This document shows, one piece after another, positions 2,871-55,649 of a stretch of DNA of 56,872 bases; positions within the stretch are counted from its first letter, which is position 1, and every line of letters begins with the position of its first letter. The notes beneath the pieces were generated by a model, which saw nothing but the letters and a program-made list of their open reading frames with translations, was not told the DNA's origin and did not search any database. The position numbers and the translations under genes are program-made. This DNA comes from Chelatococcus reniformis (GTDB taxonomy: Bacteria; Pseudomonadota; Alphaproteobacteria; Rhizobiales; Beijerinckiaceae). The stretch lies in contig NZ_BMGG01000003.1 of assembly GCF_014640075.1 (NCBI RefSeq), forward strand, positions 10,885 through 67,756. Reading direction: 5' to 3'.

Positions 2871-3708
2871 GTGCACCGATGTTCCCGGACGACGTGCTGC
2901 ACAGCCCTCCCACTACGGCCTTGCAAACCTTATCCGTCCGACGTTTCGGACGATGAATGGGCGCTGCTTGCGGCGTATCTCACCTTGCTGCCGGAGGAGA
3001 GCGGTCAGCGCTGCCATTCGCTGCGCGAGGTGTTCAACGGCCTGCGCTACATCGTAAAGGCCGGGGCGCCCTGGCGTTGGATGCCCAACGATCTGCCGCC
3101 TTGGGAGATTGTCTATCAACAAGCCCAGCGCTGGCTTCAGGCCGGATGCTTCGTGGCGCTGGTCGAAGATCTGCGCACCGTGCTGCGCTTGGCCGCCCGG
3201 CGGCCGGCCCAGCCGAGCGCCGCCTTCATCGACAGCCGCACGCTGCGCTCCACGCCAGAGAGCGACGCGCGGGCCGGATACGACGGCGCCAAGCGCAAGA
3301 AGGGTTCTAAGCTCCACATGGCCGTGGACACCCTCGGCCACATGCTGGCGCTCCACGTCACGCCGGCCAGCGACGACGACCGGTCGCAGGTCGGCCGCAT
3401 GGCCGAGGCCATCAAGGCGGCGACCGACGAGAGCGTGGACATCGCCGATCAAGGCTATACGGGAGAGCGGGCTGCGCACACGGGATCGAACTGGAAGTCG
3501 TGAAACTGCCCCAGGCCAAGCGCGGCTTCGTGTTTCTGCCCCGCCTATGGGTGGTCGAGCGATCGTTTGCATGGGCCACGCGCTTCCGACGCCTCGTCAA
3601 GGACTACGAGCGATGTGCCGAAACTCTGGCACACCTGCGTCTCATCGCATTCGTTTGCATCATGCTCAAAAACGCCGCTCACATAGCAGCTAGTTCATAA
3701 CAGCCTCT
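2871..3708 (+). pseudogene. Frameshifted IS5-family transposase (IS427/IS1031-like)
   Basis: The first frame (2871-3503) carries the N-terminal domain (SDVSDDEWALLAAYL, then GAPWRWMPNDLPPWE) and two catalytic Asp motifs, FIDSRTL and IADQGYTGE. It then runs out of frame to a stop at 3501-3503. The homologous continuation HGIELEVVKLPQAKRGF...VVERSFAWATRFRRL, holding the catalytic Glu, is in another frame and ends near 3700. The join around 3470-3482 looks like a small deletion, since residues usual between GERAA and HGIELE are missing. Some IS427-group elements make transposase by programmed frameshifting, but the missing bases favour a dead copy. The sequence at 3691-3708 (AGTTCATAACAGCCTCT) resembles the right terminal repeat. 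It separates the metallopeptidase gene from the phage operon. Confidence 0.8.
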
Positions 3709-29412: not shown

Positions 29413-29516
29413 TAGAGCGTTTTCGAGCGAAGTGGACGCCGGTTCGTGTGAAGAAAACTCGACAAATCAAACGAATAGAGCATTTCGGCGATTCGAAGAA
29501 ACGCGGAAATGCTCTA
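29413..29516. repeat. Palindromic repeat, copy 1 (104 bp)
   Basis: Starts TAGAGCGTTTTCGAGCGAAG and ends GGAAATGCTCTA. The right part is a perfect 11-bp stem, TAGAGCATTTC (29476-29486) with GAAATGCTCTA (29506-29516), around a 19-base loop. A left hairpin pairs GCGTTTTC with GAAAAC further on. Two more close copies lie at 33536-33639 and 50694-50797. The right edge provides the stop codon of the zinc-receptor gene (TAG on the minus strand, 29516-29514). Confidence 0.85.
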
Positions 29517-31718
29517 GAACCGCACCGAGGCGTAGGCCTTCACACCGCGGCCCGGCAACAGCACTTCGTCTTTCTTGAAGGAGACGCTGTTGCGGATGTC
29601 GTCGTTCAGCAGGTTGTCGCCGACAACGCCGAAGCTAACCTCCGTCAAACCGAACTGGTTGGCCGCGAGCTTGCGGGTATAGTTGACCTCAGCCTTGAGC
29701 AGGTTGTAGCCGGGCGTGCGGGTCTCGTAGGACGCCACGTCGTTCTGGGCGTAGGCGTGCAGCAGCCCGATCTTGGCGAACCATTCGTCGCTGCGGAAGT
29801 AGAGGGCACCGCCCAGCCGCTGCGGCGGCAGGCGCGGCACGTAGGTGCCGTCCGCGAACTTGGCCTGGACGATGTCGTACTGCCCCTCGACGCCGATGAC
29901 GCCGGCGCCAAGCGGCATGACGTCGTACTGCCCGATGACCTCGGCGCCTTTGAAGGTGGCGTTCTGCTGCGCGTAGGCGATCTGGGTGAGTTCGTCCTCG
30001 ACCCCGCAGGTGGCGAAGGTTTCCCCGCACATGATTCCGGTGAGACGCTTGTAGATGAAGCCCGAGAACTTCGTGTAATAGACGCTCGCTTCGAAGCGGA
30101 ACGGGCCGTCGCCCTTCTTGAGGCTGAACTCCACGGTCCTGGCCCGCTCGATGTTCAGGTTGGGGTCACCGATCTCGAAGGTGCCGGACGCTTCGTGCGG
30201 CCCCTTGGAGAACAGCTCGGGCGCGGACGGAGCCCGCTCCACGTATTGGGCGTTCAGCGTCGCCACGATGTTCCACCAGGGCAGCACCTTGAGGATGCCG
30301 GCGCTGATGCTCTTGGGGGCGAAATCGCGGTTGCGGTGCAATGTTTGAAGGGGATCCTCACTGGTGGGCAGATAGCTCCCGGGGAAGATGTCGGCCGTGC
30401 CGCTGATGCTGGCGCGCTCGATGCGGCCGGCGGCCTGGAGCTTCAAGGTATCGCTCAAGGCCAGCTCTTCGAACAGGTAGACGGCCGCGGTCTTGGTCTG
30501 GGCCGGCGCCAGCAGCCCGCCCGCCTCGCCCGAAGTGCCCAGACTCTGGTGCGCCACCTGCAGCCCGACCGAGCCGCTCAAAGCGCCGAAGGGCGTCGTG
30601 AAGGTCTTGTGCTGGACCTCCACCCGCGCCTCCTGCTCCTGGCTCTTGAACGTGCTGTGGATCTGATCCCCAAGAGCCGCAAGCGGCCCTTCCGCATGGT
30701 CGTGGTCGTGGTTGTGGTCATCCCCGTGATCGTGACCGTGCTCCGTGTGCGGGGCGCCGATCTCGAAGTGCCGGTAGTTGGAGGCACCGGCCCAAAAGCG
30801 GATGGCGTCGATGTATTCCGTGGGGGGGCGGATCTCGCCTTTCGCCACCACCTTGTCCTGCACCATGTCGATGCGCGTGCGGTTGGCCGCCGATTCGCCG
30901 CCCGGGATCTCATAGATGCTGTTCACGTGCGAATAGGCGATCCCGGCAAAACCGCTGTCGAGGATGACCGAGCCGCCAATGGCCACCCCTCTCGTGTCGA
31001 AGCCCGAATTCGCCTGGGTGCCGCCGGGGATGCGGTAGTCGCCGCCCTTCTGGGCGAAGTAGTCGGCATGGACGGCGACGTTGCCCGCCCCGGCATCGAT
31101 CGTACCGGCCGTATCGTAGCCCCGGTTGACCGAATTTACGCCGCCGGTGGCACGCGCCGTGATGCCGCCCGGCGGCAGTGCGCTCGGCACCCGGTTGTTC
31201 GTGACATCGACCACACCGCCGATCGCCTGCGAACCGAAGCGCAGCGTAGCCGGTCCGCGAATGATCTCGATTCGGTCCGCCGTCAGCGGATTGGTCGGCA
31301 CGCCGTGATCCTCGCCGAAGCTCGACACGTCGAAGGTGCTGACCCCGTTCTCCTGGAGACGCACGCGGAAATTGTCGAGGCCGCGGATGACCGGCCGGCC
31401 GGCGCCCGGCGCGAACGTCGTCGACGTCGTCCCGGGCTTGCTGAAGGTCACATCCCCCAGCGTCAGATACTGATTGCGCTCGATCTCGTTGCGCTCGACC
31501 ACCGTCACCGGCGCGAAGGTCCGGCTGGGAATGACGAGCAGGCCCGCCGGCACCTCGGCCGGCGCCGCACCAGTAGACGGCGCCACGATCGGGCTCGGCG
31601 CGCTCACCGTGATCTCCGGCAGCGCGACATCCTCGCCGCGGGCCGTCCCTGCAAGGCAGGTGAGCGGCACGCCAAGCGAGGCGACCAGACCGAGACGACG
31701 AGACCTGTTGAATGACAT
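29514..31718 (-). CDS. znuD: TonB-dependent outer-membrane receptor, ZnuD-like zinc uptake
   Basis: A 734-residue receptor with a signal peptide (MSFNRSRRLGLVASLGVPLT...). A plug domain (LTLGDVTFSKPGTTSTTFAP, VIRGLDNFRVRLQENGVSTF, IEIIRGPATLRFGSQAIGG) precedes a beta-barrel ending in the usual aromatic residue (AYASVRF). Near residues 325-345 is a His/Asp-rich loop (HTEHGHDHGDDHNHDHDH) like the metal-catching loop of Neisseria ZnuD. It should import zinc across the outer membrane using TonB energy. A Zur-box-like palindrome lies 14 bases before the start, supporting zinc regulation. Its stop codon is made by a repeat edge. No TonB or Znu transporter gene is adjacent. Confidence 0.88.
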   Translation of the reverse strand: MSFNRSRRLGLVASLGVPLTCLAGTARGEDVALPEITVSAPSPIVAPSTGAAPAEVPAGLLVIPSRTFAPVTVVERNEIERNQYLTLGDVTFSKPGTTSTTFAPGAGRPVIRGLDNFRVRLQENGVSTFDVSSFGEDHGVPTNPLTADRIEIIRGPATLRFGSQAIGGVVDVTNNRVPSALPPGGITARATGGVNSVNRGYDTAGTIDAGAGNVAVHADYFAQKGGDYRIPGGTQANSGFDTRGVAIGGSVILDSGFAGIAYSHVNSIYEIPGGESAANRTRIDMVQDKVVAKGEIRPPTEYIDAIRFWAGASNYRHFEIGAPHTEHGHDHGDDHNHDHDHAEGPLAALGDQIHSTFKSQEQEARVEVQHKTFTTPFGALSGSVGLQVAHQSLGTSGEAGGLLAPAQTKTAAVYLFEELALSDTLKLQAAGRIERASISGTADIFPGSYLPTSEDPLQTLHRNRDFAPKSISAGILKVLPWWNIVATLNAQYVERAPSAPELFSKGPHEASGTFEIGDPNLNIERARTVEFSLKKGDGPFRFEASVYYTKFSGFIYKRLTGIMCGETFATCGVEDELTQIAYAQQNATFKGAEVIGQYDVMPLGAGVIGVEGQYDIVQAKFADGTYVPRLPPQRLGGALYFRSDEWFAKIGLLHAYAQNDVASYETRTPGYNLLKAEVNYTRKLAANQFGLTEVSFGVVGDNLLNDDIRNSVSFKKDEVLLPGRGVKAYASVRF

Positions 31719-33535: not shown

Positions 33536-33639
33536 TAGAGCGTTTTCGAGCGAAGTGGACGCCGGTTCGCGTGAAGAAAACGCGACAAATCAAACAGATA
33601 GTGCATTTCGGCGATTCGAAGAAACGCGGAAATGCACTA
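33536..33639. repeat. Palindromic repeat, copy 2 (104 bp)
   Basis: Same family as the copy at 29413. Its right hairpin is TAGTGCATTTC (33599-33609) with GAAATGCACTA (33629-33639). Compared with copy 1 the second variable base pair is T-A instead of A-T on both arms, keeping the stem perfect. It lies between the thiolase terminator and the ArsR operon and touches no gene. Confidence 0.88.
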
Positions 33640-50235: not shown

Positions 50236-50339
50236 GATCACTCCTGGTGCCGAAACGGGCTCCTGGATCGAGGCCTGCGAGCCGCCGCCAGCTACGATAA
50301 CCGGACGGCGTCTGCTTCGTCAGAGCTGCATCGGAGCGC

Positions 50340-50834
50340 TCAATCGAAGCGGGCGCTGATCGCCTGTCCGTCCGGAGCGGTGATCTGCACGGCCCCCTTG
50401 GGAGCGGCCGGCAGCGAACCTTGCGCCCGGCCGGCCAGGCCACCGCCCTCCGGCACCAGGGGGATGCGCTGGACCTTGCCGTCGACGAGCAGCACGGCGA
50501 CGCCCCTGAACTTCCCCGGCGAGAGCGGCTTCTCGTCCGCGTCGGTGAGGAAGGCTTCGAGCGCTGGCCCCTTGGCCACCAGCTCGATGTGATAGGCGCC
50601 GGCCTCCACGACGCGGCCGCCGTTTGGGCCCTGGACGCTGTCATGGGCCCATGCCGGGCTCACGAAGGCCGCCGCGGCAAGCGTGGCCGAGGCTAGAGCG
50701 CTTTTGAGCGAAGTGGACGCCGGTTCGCGTGAAGAAAACGCGCCAAAACAAAGAGATAGACCATTTCGGCGATTCAACGAAACGCGGAAATGGTCTAGTG
50801 TGATCGACGTAATCTTCATGGCAAGCTTTCTCAT
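50340..50834 (-). CDS. Periplasmic protein of the metal-efflux operon, with a repeat inserted in its signal peptide
   Basis: A 164-residue protein starting at ATG 50834, two bases after the RND stop (ATG 50819 is an alternative). Its N-terminus reads MKITSITL, then 34 residues from a palindromic repeat (DHFRVSLNRRNGLSL...STSLKSAL), then ASATLAAAAFVSPAWAHDS. Removing 102 bases restores MKITSITLASATLAAAAFVS, a normal signal peptide. The mature part (GPNGGRVVEAGAYHIELVAK, LEAFLTDADEKPLSP, GVAVLLVDGKVQRIPL) belongs to small periplasmic proteins found beside Czc/Cus-type pumps. The frame is kept, so the gene may still be expressed. Confidence 0.75.
   Translation of the reverse strand: MRKLAMKITSITLDHFRVSLNRRNGLSLCFGAFSSREPASTSLKSALASATLAAAAFVSPAWAHDSVQGPNGGRVVEAGAYHIELVAKGPALEAFLTDADEKPLSPGKFRGVAVLLVDGKVQRIPLVPEGGGLAGRAQGSLPAAPKGAVQITAPDGQAISARFD
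50694..50797. repeat. Palindromic repeat, copy 3 (104 bp), in-frame inside a gene
   Basis: Same family as 29413 and 33536. The right hairpin is TAGACCATTTC (50757-50767) with GAAATGGTCTA (50787-50797), again a perfect stem with both arms changed relative to the other copies. TA at both edges (50694-50695 and 50796-50797) looks like a target duplication, which would make the net insertion 102 bases, a multiple of three. It has no stop codon in the frame of the host gene. Confidence 0.9.
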
Positions 50835-50836
50835 GG

Positions 50837-53800
50837 TCAGAACGCCTCGGCCGCCGCCTTGGCGCGTGCGCGGTCCGTCGCCGGGATTTGGGTGGAACGC
50901 AGGCGCTCGAGCGGCTTGCGGCCGAACCTGAGGAACAGCACCGGTGTCAGGAACGCGTCGAGCAGCGTGGCGGAGACCAGGCCGCCGAAGATCGTCACCG
51001 CCACCGGATGCAGGATCTCCTTGCCCGGCGCATCGGCGCCGACGAGCAATGGCACGAGCGCCACGCCGGCCGCCAGCGCGGTCATGAGCACGGGCGCCAG
51101 CCGCTCGAGGCTGCCGCGCACCACGAGGTCGCGGCCAAACGGCACGCCCTCGTACAGCGCAAGATTGATGGTGTGGCTGATCTTGAGAATGCCGTTGCGG
51201 GTGGCGATCCCGGTCAGCGTGATGAACCCGATCATCGAGGCCACGGACAGCGGCTGACCGGCGAGCCAGAGTCCGGCGACGCTGCCGATCAGCGCGAGCG
51301 GCACGTTGCCCATGATGATCAGCGCGAGCGCCGCCGACCGGTAGCGGCTGTAGAGGATGGCGAAGATGAGTGCCAGCGACAGCGCCGACAGCGCGCCGAT
51401 GGTGCGGCTCGCCTCCTCCTGCGCCTGGAAGCTCCCCTCCAGGTTCGCCGAATAGCCCGGAGGCAGCTGCGCCGCGGCAATCTGCTGGCGGATCTGCGCA
51501 GTGATCGCGGCCATGTCGCTGCGGCCGTCGGTATTGGCCTGGACGACCAGGCGCCGGCGCCCGTTCTCCCGCAGGACTTGGTTGGGACCGGTGGTCTCGC
51601 GGATGTCGGCGAGTTGGCGGGCCGGCACCCAGCCGGCCGGCGTTTCGACCAGCAGGTCGCCGAGGCCTTGCGTGGTCCGCAGACGCTCGGGGAGGCGGAT
51701 GGTGACATCGAAGCGCCGGTTGCCGTCGACGACCGTGGACACGACACGACCGCTGGAGAGGCTGCTCAGCTGCTCGACGACGGCCGCCGGCTGGACACCG
51801 TAGAGCGCCGCCCGGCCGTAGTCGACGCGGACGTCGAGCTGCGGGATGCGCACCTGCTTTTCGACCTGGAGGTCGACGAGGCCCGGGATGCGCGCCATGC
51901 GGCCGCGCAGATCCTCGGCAAGCGTGCGCAGCGTGTCGAGGTCCTCGCCGAAGATCTTGAGCGCGATCTCGGCCCGCACGCCCGACAGCATGTGGTCGAG
52001 CCGGTGCGAAATGGGCTGGCCCACGTTCACCGAGACCGGCAGCACAGCCAGGCGCCGCCGCAGGTCGGCGACCACCTCCGGCTTGGACCGCCCGCGGGGC
52101 TTGAGCTCCACCTCGAGATCCGAGGAATGGACGCCTTCGGCGTGCTCGTCCAGTTCGGCCCGGCCGGTGCGCCGCCCGACGGCCGCCACCTCGGGGACGG
52201 CGGCAAGCAGCCCTTCGGCGATGAGCCCCACCCGGTTCGACTCGGCAAGCGAGATCCCGGGGTTGAAGGTCATGTTGATGGTGAACGAGCCCTCGTTGAA
52301 GGGCGGTAGGAAGGCGCGCGGCAGCTGGTTCGCGGCGATGGCCGCCGTGGCCACCGCCAGCGCGGCGCCGCCGAACAACAGGCCCTGATGGCGGAAGGCG
52401 GAGCGCAGGAGCCTCTCGTTCCAGGCCTTCAACCACCGCACCAGGCCGCTGTCGCGCTCGTCCAGCCGCTTGAGCGACGGCAGGAGGTAGTAGGCCATGA
52501 CCGGCGTCAGCGTGATGGACACCACCAGGCTGCACAGGATCGAGATAATGTAGGCCTGCCCGAGCGGGGCAAAGAGGCGGCCCTCGATCCCCGAGAGCGC
52601 GAACAGCGGCGCGAACACCAGGACGATGATGACGGTGGCGTAGACGATGCCGGAGCGCACCTCCTGCGAGGCCGAGACGACCACGTCGATGACGGAGCGA
52701 GGGTTGCCGTGCTCCCGGTTCTCCCGCAGTCGGCGGAAGATGTTCTCCACGTCGACGACCGCGTCGTCAACCAGTTCGCCGATGGCGATGGCGAGGCCGC
52801 CCAGCGTCATGGTGTTGATGGACAGACCGGCGATATGGAACACCACCGCGGTCGCCAGCACCGAAACGGGGATCGCCGTGAGGGAGATCGCGGTAGTTCG
52901 CAGGTTGAGCAGAAACGCGAACAGCACGACGGCCACGACGAGCACTGCTTCGACCAGCACGCGCTCGAGATTGCGGATGGAGGTTTGGATAAAATCCGCC
53001 TGCCGGAACACGATCTTGTCGGCGCTCAGGCCTGGCGTCGTGGCCGTGATGTCGCGCAGGACGCGCTCGACTTCGCCCGTCAGCTTGACCGTGTCGACCC
53101 CGGGCTGCTTCTCGATCGACACGATCACCGCCGGAGCGCCGTTGTAGCCGGCATCGCCGCGCTTGCTCCTGGCGGCGAATGCGACATCGGCCACCTGGTG
53201 CAGGTAGACCGGGCCCTTGGCCGTGGTGGCCACCACGATGTTGCGCAAGTCGTCGAGGCGGGTGGTCCGGCCGATGTTGCGGATCAGGTATTCACGGCCA
53301 TTCTGATCGGCGAAGCCGCCGCCCGCATTGACACCGAACTGACCGAGAGCCTTCTCGATCTGGCCGTAGGTCACCCCCAGGGCGCGGACGGCCGTCGGGT
53401 GCGGGCTCACGCGATACTGGCGCACCTCGCCCCCGATCGGGATGACCTGGGCGACCCCCTGAATCGTCAGCAGCCGAGGGCGGATGACAAAGTCGGCGAT
53501 CTCCCGCACCTCCATGGGCGAGGCTTGATCGCTGGTCACCGCGACCATGACGATCTGGCCCATGATCGAGCTGATCGGTGCCATCTGCGGAGCCACGTTC
53601 GGCGGCAGCTGGCTGCGCACCTGGGCGAGGCGCTCGGCGACCTGCTGACGGTTGCGGTAGATGTCGGTGCCCCAGTCGAACTCCACGTAGACAACCGAGA
53701 GGCCGACCCCGGACACCGACCTCACCCGGGTCACCCCGGGCACGCCGTTCATCCGTGTCTCGATGGGAAAGCTGACGAGTTGCTCCACCTCGGGCGGTGC

Positions 53801-53968
53801 GTAGCCATCCGCCTCCGTCATGATGGTGACGGTCGGCCGGTTCAGGTCGGGAAACACGTCGACGGGCAGGCGCGCGGCCGTCAGGGCGCCGAAGACCATG
53901 AGCGCAGCTGCGGCCGCGAGCACCAGCACGCGGTTGCGAAGCGATTGGGTGACCAGGAAGGTGAACAT
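50837..53968 (-). CDS. Heavy-metal RND efflux pump, CzcA/CusA type
   Basis: A 1043-residue inner-membrane transporter with twelve predicted helices and two large periplasmic loops. The first helix (LVTQSLRNRVLVLAAAAALM) and VDVFPDLNRPTVTIMTEADG are characteristic of heavy-metal RND pumps. Helix 4 carries AIAIGELVDDAVVDVENIF, with Asp and Glu of the proton relay; FAPLFALSGIEGRLFAPLG and TLTGIATRNGILKISH are also typical. It exports a divalent or monovalent metal with an outer-membrane partner not in the window. The adaptor gene lies ten bases upstream on the same strand. Metal cannot be fixed from sequence; zinc, cobalt, nickel or copper are open. Confidence 0.92.
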   Translation of the reverse strand: MFTFLVTQSLRNRVLVLAAAAALMVFGALTAARLPVDVFPDLNRPTVTIMTEADGYAPPEVEQLVSFPIETRMNGVPGVTRVRSVSGVGLSVVYVEFDWGTDIYRNRQQVAERLAQVRSQLPPNVAPQMAPISSIMGQIVMVAVTSDQASPMEVREIADFVIRPRLLTIQGVAQVIPIGGEVRQYRVSPHPTAVRALGVTYGQIEKALGQFGVNAGGGFADQNGREYLIRNIGRTTRLDDLRNIVVATTAKGPVYLHQVADVAFAARSKRGDAGYNGAPAVIVSIEKQPGVDTVKLTGEVERVLRDITATTPGLSADKIVFRQADFIQTSIRNLERVLVEAVLVVAVVLFAFLLNLRTTAISLTAIPVSVLATAVVFHIAGLSINTMTLGGLAIAIGELVDDAVVDVENIFRRLRENREHGNPRSVIDVVVSASQEVRSGIVYATVIIVLVFAPLFALSGIEGRLFAPLGQAYIISILCSLVVSITLTPVMAYYLLPSLKRLDERDSGLVRWLKAWNERLLRSAFRHQGLLFGGAALAVATAAIAANQLPRAFLPPFNEGSFTINMTFNPGISLAESNRVGLIAEGLLAAVPEVAAVGRRTGRAELDEHAEGVHSSDLEVELKPRGRSKPEVVADLRRRLAVLPVSVNVGQPISHRLDHMLSGVRAEIALKIFGEDLDTLRTLAEDLRGRMARIPGLVDLQVEKQVRIPQLDVRVDYGRAALYGVQPAAVVEQLSSLSSGRVVSTVVDGNRRFDVTIRLPERLRTTQGLGDLLVETPAGWVPARQLADIRETTGPNQVLRENGRRRLVVQANTDGRSDMAAITAQIRQQIAAAQLPPGYSANLEGSFQAQEEASRTIGALSALSLALIFAILYSRYRSAALALIIMGNVPLALIGSVAGLWLAGQPLSVASMIGFITLTGIATRNGILKISHTINLALYEGVPFGRDLVVRGSLERLAPVLMTALAAGVALVPLLVGADAPGKEILHPVAVTIFGGLVSATLLDAFLTPVLFLRFGRKPLERLRSTQIPATDRARAKAAAEAF

Positions 53969-53978
53969 GACCGCCTCC

Positions 53979-55649
53979 TCAGCGCACCTGGTCGAGGAGC
54001 TCGGCCCCCTGGGTGACGATCCGCTTGCCGGGCGACAGCCCGGCCTCGATCAGCACCCGGCCGCCGTCGAGCGTCGTCGTCCGCACCGGCCGGGCCGCGA
54101 AGCGCTCGGCAGTGACGTGCTCGTAGACGACCTCCTGGCCGCTGCTGCTGCGCACGACGCTGGCGCGGGGCAGCGCAAGCCCATGCTCGCGCCCCCCCGT
54201 GCCGACCTGGACGGTGACGAACTGGCCGATGCGCAGCCCCGACGTATCGCCGCGGATGGCGAACTGGACAGGCACGGACTGGTTGCGGTCGGCCAGCCCC
54301 GCCCCCTGGTAGGCGAGCTGTAGAACACGACCGTCCGCCAGGCGGGCCGTCGCCGCGCTGGCGCCCGCCACGGCGTCGAAGCTGAGCGCCTCGACCCAGA
54401 GGCGCGCCGGGTCGACCACCTGGAACACCACGGCGCCCGGCGCCGCCATCTGGCCGGCGACCGCCGTCGATTCGGCGACGACGCCATCGACGGGTGCGAC
54501 CAGCGGCTCCGGCTCCTGGCGCACCGTGTCGAGCGCCGCGCGGCGATCGCGCAGGCCCTGCAGTTCGTCCGTCGCCTCCTCGAGCTGCACCTGGGAAACG
54601 GCGCCGGAGCCGACGAGGCGTCGATAGCGCGCGACCCGCCGCTCCACGGTGGCGATCTGCTGATCTAGCTCGCCCTGGCGCTGGCGCATGTCCGACACGT
54701 CCACCCGCTGCACCGGCGGCGTCACGTAGGCAAGGACGGTGCCCTTCCGGACTGCGGTGCCGAGCCGCGGAAAGCCGCCGCTCGGCGCCGACAGCCGGCC
54801 CCCGACGGATGACTGCACCACGCCGCTCGCGTTGGGATCGGGGACGATGCGTCCGGGCAGCTCGGTGGTGCGGCCGTGACTCTCCGCCTCGCTGACAACG
54901 GTGCGGATGGCGAGAATGCGCTGGACCGGCTTCGGCACGAAAACGCTGCCGTCCGGCTGGCGCCGCGCCAGATCACTGCCTGCGGCCGCCGGCGGCGCAC
55001 CGCCAGCCTCGCCATGGTCATCGCCCTCATGTGCGCGCGCGGTCGCTACTGCGAGCGGGAGGGCGAGCGCGAGTACGGCGACAGCCGGAGCGGCGCGACG
55101 ACGGCGGACGAGGAGGGTCGCTGCGACACCGAGCGCGAAGGCCAGCAGGGCAACGCCGGACAGCAGCGGATCCGCGGGGAGGAGACGCTCGCTGCGATGG
55201 GTTGCGGCACCGTCCGGCACCCCTCCGGCCTCGGGCGAACTCGGAACGACGATCGTCACCGGCAATACGTCGTCGGCGCCGTCGACGGTCAGCGTCAGCA
55301 GCAGATCATGCCGACCCTGCTTGCCGAGCCAGGGGACCGCAACCGTATACCGGCCCTCGGGCTCGGGCTTGAGCGTCACCGGCCCGTCGGGAGCCTCGAC
55401 GGCAACGCTCGCCCCGGTGATCGGCTCGTTGGTGGCGAACCGGTCCAGGTAGACCGACAATACACCCTCGCGCACCGCCGCAACGAGTTCGACCTCCGCG
55501 CTGGCCGCCTCGCCGCGTGGCGCCGCCGGCGTCGCCGAGGAGGCGGGCGTCTCGCCGTGGTCATGACCTTCGTGCGCCTGCGCCCCCGTGGTGAGCAGGG
55601 CTGCCGCCAGCGCCGCCGCGCCGAGCGCTGCGGCAAATCTCACATGCAT
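53979..55649 (-). CDS. RND adaptor (membrane fusion) protein with extra His-rich N-terminal domain
   Basis: A 556-residue protein, long for its class. Residues 1-25 are a signal peptide followed by HEGHDHGE. Residues 50-150 form a beta-domain (YLDRFATNEPITGASVAVEA, VTLTVDGADDVLPVTIVVP). A membrane helix (LLSGVALLAFALGVAATLLV) and a second hydrophobic segment ending in ARAHEGDDHGE come next. From about 225 the adaptor proper follows: GRIVPDPNASGVVQSSVGGR, a coiled-coil hairpin (RQRQGELDQQIATVERRVAR), VAPVDGVVAESTAVAGQM and the barrel. Two His-rich metal sites flank the first domain. It looks like a fused metal-capturing module. Co-transcribed with the pump gene. Confidence 0.87.
   Translation of the reverse strand: MHVRFAAALGAAALAAALLTTGAQAHEGHDHGETPASSATPAAPRGEAASAEVELVAAVREGVLSVYLDRFATNEPITGASVAVEAPDGPVTLKPEPEGRYTVAVPWLGKQGRHDLLLTLTVDGADDVLPVTIVVPSSPEAGGVPDGAATHRSERLLPADPLLSGVALLAFALGVAATLLVRRRRAAPAVAVLALALPLAVATARAHEGDDHGEAGGAPPAAAGSDLARRQPDGSVFVPKPVQRILAIRTVVSEAESHGRTTELPGRIVPDPNASGVVQSSVGGRLSAPSGGFPRLGTAVRKGTVLAYVTPPVQRVDVSDMRQRQGELDQQIATVERRVARYRRLVGSGAVSQVQLEEATDELQGLRDRRAALDTVRQEPEPLVAPVDGVVAESTAVAGQMAAPGAVVFQVVDPARLWVEALSFDAVAGASAATARLADGRVLQLAYQGAGLADRNQSVPVQFAIRGDTSGLRIGQFVTVQVGTGGREHGLALPRASVVRSSSGQEVVYEHVTAERFAARPVRTTTLDGGRVLIEAGLSPGKRIVTQGAELLDQVR

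What the first reader, a model, noticed from the sequence alone, without database searches (positions are those of the whole stretch)
50693..50834. Palindromic repeat inserted in frame inside a signal peptide
A 100-bp repeat flanked by TA on both sides sits within the first codons of the small periplasmic gene of the metal-efflux operon. Deleting 102 bases (element plus one TA) joins ACA-CTA-GCC-TCG and gives a textbook signal peptide (MKITSITLASATLAAAAFVS...). The insertion is a multiple of three and carries no stop in this frame, so the protein gains about 34 residues ahead of its hydrophobic core. This recalls the Rickettsia palindromic elements, repeats tolerated inside proteins, but here in a likely Hyphomicrobiales member and in an export signal.
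Basis: partly seen in the sequence, partly recalled or inferred. Interest (0 to 1): 0.78.

Follow-up and report, generated by a model that had tools for sequence, protein, structure and literature searches.

The report
Mobile palindromes inside signal peptides
A short mobile DNA repeat that usually lands beside genes, often exactly on a gene's stop signal, has here jumped in frame into the start of an export-tagged protein, and a second such case in the same genome suggests that cleaved signal peptides can tolerate it.

Summary
Confirmed. A 104-bp palindromic repeat (50694-50797, minus strand; net insert 102 bp) begins at nucleotide 23 of the likely reading frame of the last gene of a CusA/CzcA-type efflux operon. 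Without it a standard signal peptide appears. Homologues at 29 readable loci lack it. No start codon lies between repeat and hydrophobic core, so an exported product must be read through all or most of the repeat; translation is not shown. The repeat has the anatomy reported for alphaproteobacterial CIR elements, which two reviews describe as intergenic only. The genome has 250 core matches. Of 181 copies tested, none lies in a gene body with 60 bp of coding on each side. Of 189 read for starts, two run in frame from a start codon through the repeat into a gene with no normal start behind it: this one and one in an RND adaptor gene elsewhere (L234). Both sit 22-23 nt after an ATG, before a signal-peptide core. 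The repeat targets YTAR (118 of 132 copies with both TAs); 51 of these 118 sit on a gene's stop codon (7.3 expected), which the repeat's TAG end rebuilds. Best reading: a non-autonomous, TA-duplicating element tolerated in disposable n-regions.

The parts
50694..50797 (-). CIR-like palindromic element, 104 bp from TA to TA (102-bp net insert); target CTAG with TA duplicated
50757..50797 (-). arm 1: hairpin with GAATC in its loop region; pair 5-37 kept by a change on both sides
50694..50741 (-). arm 2: second hairpin and right end CGCTCTA; a T-rich linker joins the arms
50340..50834 (-). host ORF, 164 aa from the first ATG; likely native start is the second ATG (MKITS, first base 50819), GAGAAAG six bases before it
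50837..53968 (-). CusA/CzcA-family heavy-metal efflux RND permease; its stop lies 2 nt before the first ATG of the host ORF
53979..55649 (-). RND periplasmic adaptor subunit
29413..29516 (-). second window copy: its first TAG is the stop codon of a TonB-dependent receptor gene (29514..31718, minus) ending ...KAYASVRF
33536..33639 (-). third window copy, pair 4-38 kept by a change on both sides

Best explanation
The repeat is a non-autonomous, transposon-like palindromic element of the alphaproteobacterial CIR kind that inserts at YTAR and duplicates TA. Here it entered codon 8 of a small exported protein. The net insert is 102 bp and this copy has T where most have A (avoiding a TGA), so the frame stayed open. 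The ribosome starts at the native ATG, reads 34 extra residues and then the untouched hydrophobic core and AWA/HD cleavage site; the lengthened, net positive n-region is removed with the signal peptide, so the mature protein is unchanged and the insertion is roughly neutral. The same happened independently, in another frame, in an RND adaptor gene (L234). Shown: insertion, target, TA duplication, frame, absence in homologues, rarity in genes, second case. Inferred: translation, export, neutrality, independence of the two events, and the mobilising enzyme, which was not identified.
For: Empty site and frame. N-termini of 29 readable homologous loci without the insert. Second case: ATG 23 nt before the repeat with GAGGAG upstream, open through the repeat, then PSTCCVAALGFLASIAGAAAQS and an RND adaptor above the TIGR01730 cut-off; no ATG, GTG or TTG in the first 75 nt after the repeat; 25 readable homologous places lack the insert by eye. 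Anatomy in 181 copies: TA at both ends in 132, 102-bp insert in 142, GANTC at the loop position in 151. YTAR in 118 of 132, about 8% of TA sites in the background. Same best hydrophobic window and cleavage position with and without the repeat, n-region net charge +4 against +1 (hydropathy scan only).
Against: No transcript, proteome or export data. Arm 1 (-20.6 kcal/mol) lies at nucleotides 23-63 of the frame and could lower translation. An n-region of about 42 residues is long. Open-frame retention is weak evidence: 77% of simulated copies with 9 random substitutions stay open. No close strain with the empty site was found; the one same-genus homologue is 40-43% identical. In the second case the right end reads TC, not TA, so TA duplication there is only half visible.
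Confidence: 0.74

Rival explanations
1. The insertion inactivates the gene: the hairpin or the long n-region blocks translation or export, and the open frame is an accident of a 102-bp insert.
For: Hairpin just after the start; 144 of 181 copies make inserts that are multiples of 3; 77% of simulated copies stay open; copies are missing from coding interiors, 0 against 9.5 expected.
Against: The rest of both host ORFs is intact with coding-like codon use. Both copies are diverged (95 and 94 of 104 identical to the consensus; 10 of 142 standard-length copies match less than the window copy) without a stop or frameshift. The only two such cases both lie before a signal-peptide core.
Confidence: 0.17
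2. Translation starts inside the repeat at a TTG, so that part of it is leader.
For: An in-frame TTG lies in the repeat in both cases.
Against: No Shine-Dalgarno-like stretch stands before the window's TTG, whereas the upstream ATGs have GAGAAAG and GAGGAG. The next start in the window gene, a GTG, lies inside the core.
Confidence: 0.05
3. The repeat was kept because its hairpin or its GANTC site now regulates the gene.
For: GAATC kept in the loop. Both coding copies keep arm 1 through a change on both sides of a pair (5-37 and 6-36). In 141 copies two-sided standard changes total 16, with 6.4 expected if the sides changed independently. A RAMA-domain protein is present.
Against: Intergenic copies have the same features. 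172 cells are broken pairs, and RNAalifold with default scoring did not return the two-arm fold. No functional data.
Confidence: 0.08
4. The family is adapted to live inside proteins, as Rickettsia palindromic elements are.
For: Inserts mostly a multiple of three; 370 of 852 frames (43%) of 142 copies are open against 20% in base-shuffled copies; two in-frame cases.
Against: 0 of 181 copies inside gene bodies against 293 of 767 TA sites of the window and 34 of 358 YTAR sites.
Confidence: 0.04

Closest known systems
CIR, Caulobacter CcrM-associated intergenic repeats (Chen and Shapiro 2003; known here only through PMC2229807, section 7 and passages, and PMC10969869, passages)
   Same: About 110 bp, two inverted-repeat arms and a linker, GANTC at a terminal loop, TA at the ends, in several alphaproteobacteria; a relative on an Asticcacaulis plasmid (Caulobacteraceae) aligns along the whole element.
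   Different: PMC2229807 says CIR is not found in genes and has stops in all six frames; here the consensus is open in up to four frames and two copies are in frame in genes. Published CIR letters were not available.
Bru-RS1/Bru-RS2 of Brucella and RIME of rhizobia
   Same: Bru-RS are 103-106 bp palindromic repeats (PMC10800456, PMC3163539, passages); IS711, associated with them, duplicates TA at YTAR (PMC2266754, PMC3163539, passages), the target pattern seen here. RIME are annotated intergenic repeats of S. meliloti (PMC2573895, passages). Relatives of this element occur on Sinorhizobium and Rhizobium plasmids.
   Different: Sequence identity with Bru-RS or RIME themselves was not tested; no annotated repeat feature was available in the records used.
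Enterobacterial RU-2, case YPO1552 (PMC2759123, abstract and passages)
   Same: A small mobile repeat fused in frame into the predicted signal peptide of a putative exported protein.
   Different: There the repeat forms part of the signal peptide; here the old core is intact and the n-region is lengthened. Another repeat family in another bacterial class.
Rickettsia palindromic elements (PMC2229807 and PMC10969869, passages)
   Same: In-frame insertion of a palindrome of 105-150 bp into genes that appear to be retained.
   Different: They are frequent in genes; this family is almost absent from gene bodies.
QMITE2 of Coxiella (PMC5896051 and PMC10969869, passages)
   Same: Reported mainly in 3' untranslated regions, with some in-frame cases.
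   Different: No exact landing on the stop codon is stated in the passages seen; unrelated sequence context.

Membership tests
CIR | about 110 bp, two hairpin arms and a linker | tested here: met
   104 bp; two hairpins in single-sequence folds. Against: RNAalifold on 141 copies did not return them
CIR | GANTC at or in a terminal loop | tested here: met
   151 of 181 copies at one position, 160 of 181 anywhere; 9 of the 11 plasmid relatives fetched, at the same alignment column
CIR | 5'-TA-3' at the ends | tested here: met
   both ends in 132 of 181 copies
CIR | occurs in alphaproteobacteria including Caulobacteraceae | tested here: met
   134 plasmid records of nine genera, one of them Asticcacaulis; the class of genera not fetched is recalled
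CIR | sequence identity with published CIR1-CIR4 | not testable with these tools
   the 2003 paper is not held
CIR | not found in genes, stops in all six frames (a description in reviews rather than a definition) | tested here: not met
   two in-frame copies; 120, 117, 83 and 44 of 142 copies open in four frames, 6 and 0 in the others
Rickettsia palindromic element | copies frequently inside protein genes | tested here: not met
   0 of 181 in gene bodies; 2 of 189 near a gene start
MITE of a TA-duplicating transposase | TA duplication and terminal inverted repeats | tested here: met
   TA at both ends in 132 of 181, YTAR in 118 of those 132; both ends of the consensus read TAGAGC(A/G)TTT inward
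MITE of a TA-duplicating transposase | a full-length relative with matching ends in the genome | tested here: not met
   3 DDE_3 and 5 DUF4096 places looked at; one 814-bp element begins CTAGAGGCTGTTAT and shares only TAGAG with the repeat. Other transposase families were not searched

The most novel reading that the evidence does not exclude
The family survives in a compact genome through two safe harbours: stop codons, which its TAG-bearing ends rebuild, and the n-regions of cleaved signal peptides, where its 102-bp, stop-poor body adds residues that are thrown away. Either the mobilising enzyme favours such places or selection leaves mainly these.
Probability: 0.42. Interest if true: 0.66.

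Novelty: new variant of a known kind. Interest (0 to 1): 0.55.

Why it matters
Repeats of this kind have been reported as intergenic only. Two in-frame cases, both ahead of a signal-peptide core, point to a specific way in which mobile DNA can enter proteins at little cost. The finding that about a third of the examined copies sit exactly on a gene's stop codon gives a testable reason why such repeats reach hundreds of copies in a dense genome.

Tried and rejected
A test for start-proximal reading showed that L234 is a second case, on the other strand from the one judged before. An earlier read-out test had a threshold that misses the window copy itself, so it could not have supported uniqueness. 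I raised the confidence of the best reading slightly (0.72 to 0.74), lowered the inactivation rival (0.20 to 0.17), and raised interest and the novel case because of the second case.

Considered and dropped: a leader-only reading; an Rfam family (only an unrelated sub-threshold match near the locus at E up to 5); a sigma-70-type promoter or intrinsic terminator in 50300-51000 (0 and 0 found); L042, L124 and L257, which read through the repeat but have an ATG 23-35 nt after it; L219 with an ATG 20 nt after the repeat, L041, L255 and L267 with weak coding signal downstream, and L261 with no open frame over 270 bp. The first coding test gave 0 of 100; one search checked it against window TA sites.

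Limits: 181 copies in the main tests and 8 added for the start test and a stop check, of at least 250 core matches. They came from ranked or capped listings (one search listed 100 of 250; searches list by reading frame), so the sample is not random; 20 partial matches were left out. The coding model was trained on ORFs of the window and fetched loci. Control sites come from flanks of the same copies and the window, so gene ends already occupied are missing from the control. In one search the CTAG control gave 12 of 128 at stop codons; one search dropped sites within 110 bp of a repeat and gave 7 of 116. In one search at least one side could not be classed in 97 of 181 copies. Homologues are 30-50% identical, so orthology is not proven. 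SignalP was not available. Of papers I saw passages, one section and one abstract with outline. Searches on stop-codon insertion in print were made; no title or abstract shown there describes it, and most papers are not in the library. Recalled and from no call: that IS711 belongs to the IS5 family, that RAMA marks CcrM-like methylases, the terminal phenylalanine of outer-membrane barrels, and the share of genes with signal peptides.

Full report
What is there. On the minus strand the efflux permease gene ends with TGA. Two bases later comes ATG AGA AAG CTT GCC ATG AAG ATT ACG TCG ATC ACA C, then the repeat from TA to TA, then GCC TCG GCC. The repeat spans 50694-50797 and the net insert is 102 bp. 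The 164-residue ORF runs through it without a stop. With the flanks joined, the gene begins MKITSITLASATLAAAAFVSPAWAHD.

Host gene and homologues. The neighbours are a CusA/CzcA-family permease and an RND adaptor, both above curated cut-offs. The small protein has no Pfam or NCBIfam match at the limits used. A search with the part after the repeat found matches in 40 of 199 genomes of the family, the window's own included, at 45 places. I read the N-termini at 29 of the 44 other places and at one Methylorubrum locus (30 in all). In one (L117) no signal peptide could be made out. In the other 29 a start lies shortly before the hydrophobic core and no insert is seen. Identities to the window protein are 30-50%.

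Start codon. In frame and before the core there are two ATGs upstream of the repeat and one TTG inside it; the next GTG lies within the core. GAGAAAG stands six bases before the second ATG (read). An exported product must therefore be translated through the repeat, or most of it. A hydropathy scan gives the same best 11-residue window and the same AWA/HD site with and without the repeat; the n-region grows from 8 to 42 residues and its net charge from +1 to +4.

The repeat family. A 28-base core has 250 matches in the 6.8-Mb genome at up to 3 mismatches, 0 for the reversed-pattern control. I examined 181 distinct near-full copies. The net insert is 102 bp in 142 and a multiple of three in 144; TA stands at both ends in 132; GANTC stands at the same loop position in 151. 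Among the 142 copies of standard length, the numbers open in the six frames are 120, 117, 83, 44 (the window's frame), 6 and 0. The window copy matches the consensus at 95 of 104 positions; 10 of 142 match less. Its positions 5 and 37 changed together so that arm 1 still pairs. Over 141 copies two-sided standard changes total 16 with 6.4 expected if the sides changed independently, but 172 cells are broken pairs and RNAalifold with default scoring did not return the two-arm fold. Covariation support is modest.

Relatives of the repeat. Weaker matches occur in 16 of 60 genomes, the window's own included, and in 134 plasmid records of nine genera. I fetched 11 of these 134 places. They align along the whole length, and 9 of 11 have GANTC at the loop column. 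Eight of the 11 carry gene tables there. In none of the eight does the repeat lie within a gene body. In four of the eight, six annotated genes in all, a stop codon lies on the repeat's terminal TA: Xanthobacter Py2 (one end), two Shinella records (both ends), R. leguminosarum (one end).

Where copies sit. With a codon-usage model, 0 of 181 empty sites lie inside coding sequence with 60 bp on each side, against 293 of 767 TA sites of the window. This test cannot see insertions close to a gene start. I therefore also read the actual sequence for a start codon up to 120 nt upstream, an open frame through the repeat and 240 nt of coding-like frame beyond. Of 189 copies (the 181 and 8 fetched later), five pass. 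Three of them (L042, L124, L257) have an ATG 23-35 nt after the repeat, a normal 5' position. Two do not: the window copy and L234.

The second case. L234 (contig C3, 282309-284709 of the same genome, outside the window) has GAGGAG, then an ATG 23 nt before the repeat, then an open frame through the repeat in another frame than the window's, then PSTCCVAALGFLASIAGAAAQSTAPPPP and the body of an RND adaptor (TIGR01730, 291 bits, cut-off 94.9; a MexE model scores higher in bits but is below its own cut-off). The first ATG, GTG or TTG after the repeat comes at 89 nt, past the core. Matches at E up to 1e-60 were found in 20 of 41 genomes, own included, at 27 places. Of the 26 other places I could read 25 N-termini, and by eye none has the insert; one (L320) gave no readable frame. 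The copy matches the consensus at 94 of 104 positions, keeps pair 6-36 by a change on both sides, and its right end has decayed from TA to TC. So the two start-proximal in-frame cases found both lie 22-23 nt after an ATG and just before a signal-peptide core, and both belong to RND efflux gene sets. With two cases this is suggestive, not proof of a niche.

Target and stop codons. Among 132 copies with both TAs the joined site is CTAG in 76, CTAA or TTAG in 39 and TTAA in 3: YTAR in 118. In the surrounding DNA these make about 8% of TA sites. Of 177 gene ends that face a copy, 65 have their stop codon exactly at the repeat's terminal TA; offsets -12 to -1 have at most 3 each and offsets 1 to 9 none. 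In 61 of the 65 the empty site is itself a stop codon. Against YTAR sites of the same flanks and the window (19 of 358 at stop codons, 34 of 358 in coding interiors), the 118 YTAR copies show 51 at stop codons (7.3 expected, Fisher p about 1e-20) and 0 in coding interiors (9.5 expected, p about 5e-5). Of the 8 copies fetched later, 4 have a gene's stop on a terminal TA. Only 1 of 181 copies was classed as lying between two gene starts, though 97 of 181 had at least one unclassed side. The window holds an example: the copy at 29413-29516 supplies the TAG of a TonB-dependent receptor gene.

Mechanism. TA duplication at YTAR is what is reported for IS711, which is associated with Bru-RS repeats (PMC2266754, PMC3163539, passages); a cited title gives CTAG for IS630. 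This genome has transposases with DDE_3 and DUF4096 domains, but no full element with the repeat's ends was found among the places looked at. The repeat is best seen as a non-autonomous element moved by an unidentified TA-duplicating transposase. Both its ends read TAG going inward, so it rebuilds a stop codon when it enters TAG or TAA. Where it enters a signal-peptide n-region in a permissive frame it adds 34 residues that signal peptidase would remove.

Comparison. PMC2229807 describes CIR as about 110 bp with two arms, a linker and a GANTC at a loop (section 7) and TA at the ends (table), and says CIR has not been found in genes and has stops in all frames. PMC10969869 says strictly intergenic (passage). 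Anatomy and distribution match; the two negative statements do not hold here. A RAMA-domain protein is present; the same search rings in 1 of 14 control genomes, Caulobacter vibrioides. GANTC methylation was not tested. In-frame fusion of a small repeat with a signal peptide has a precedent in the enterobacterial RU-2 case YPO1552 (PMC2759123).

Verdict. The insertion and its frame are real, and the repeat is probably translated in a tolerated, lengthened n-region. It is a known kind of element in a place where that kind has been said not to occur, with a second case in the same genome. The stop-codon niche and the signal-peptide niche both deserve a check in other genomes.

Noticed in passing
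window 29413-29516 (minus strand) and 65 gene ends in the examined loci: Copies of the repeat sit exactly on gene stop codons and rebuild them: 65 of 177 gene ends facing a copy; the window example is a TonB-dependent receptor gene.
   Followed up: partly
L234 (same genome, contig C3 282309-284709): A second in-frame copy in the n-region of a signal peptide, in an RND adaptor gene.
   Followed up: partly
L289/L294 (contig C20 of the same genome), about 814 bp: An IS-like element with 14-bp inverted ends beginning CTAGAGGCTGTTAT holds a DUF4096 match; it is flanked by TA in CTAG and shares TAGAG with the repeat.
   Followed up: partly
window about 2943-3161: A DUF4096 match (transposase-type) lies inside the window (L293).
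   Followed up: no
window 33536-33639 and 50694-50797, and L234: Three copies keep an arm-1 pair through a change on both sides (4-38, 5-37, 6-36), hinting at hairpin-templated repair or selection for the hairpin.
   Followed up: partly
window 50340-50645: The mature small protein is modelled as an all-beta domain with invariant G, G, E, L, G columns and no known family.
   Followed up: partly
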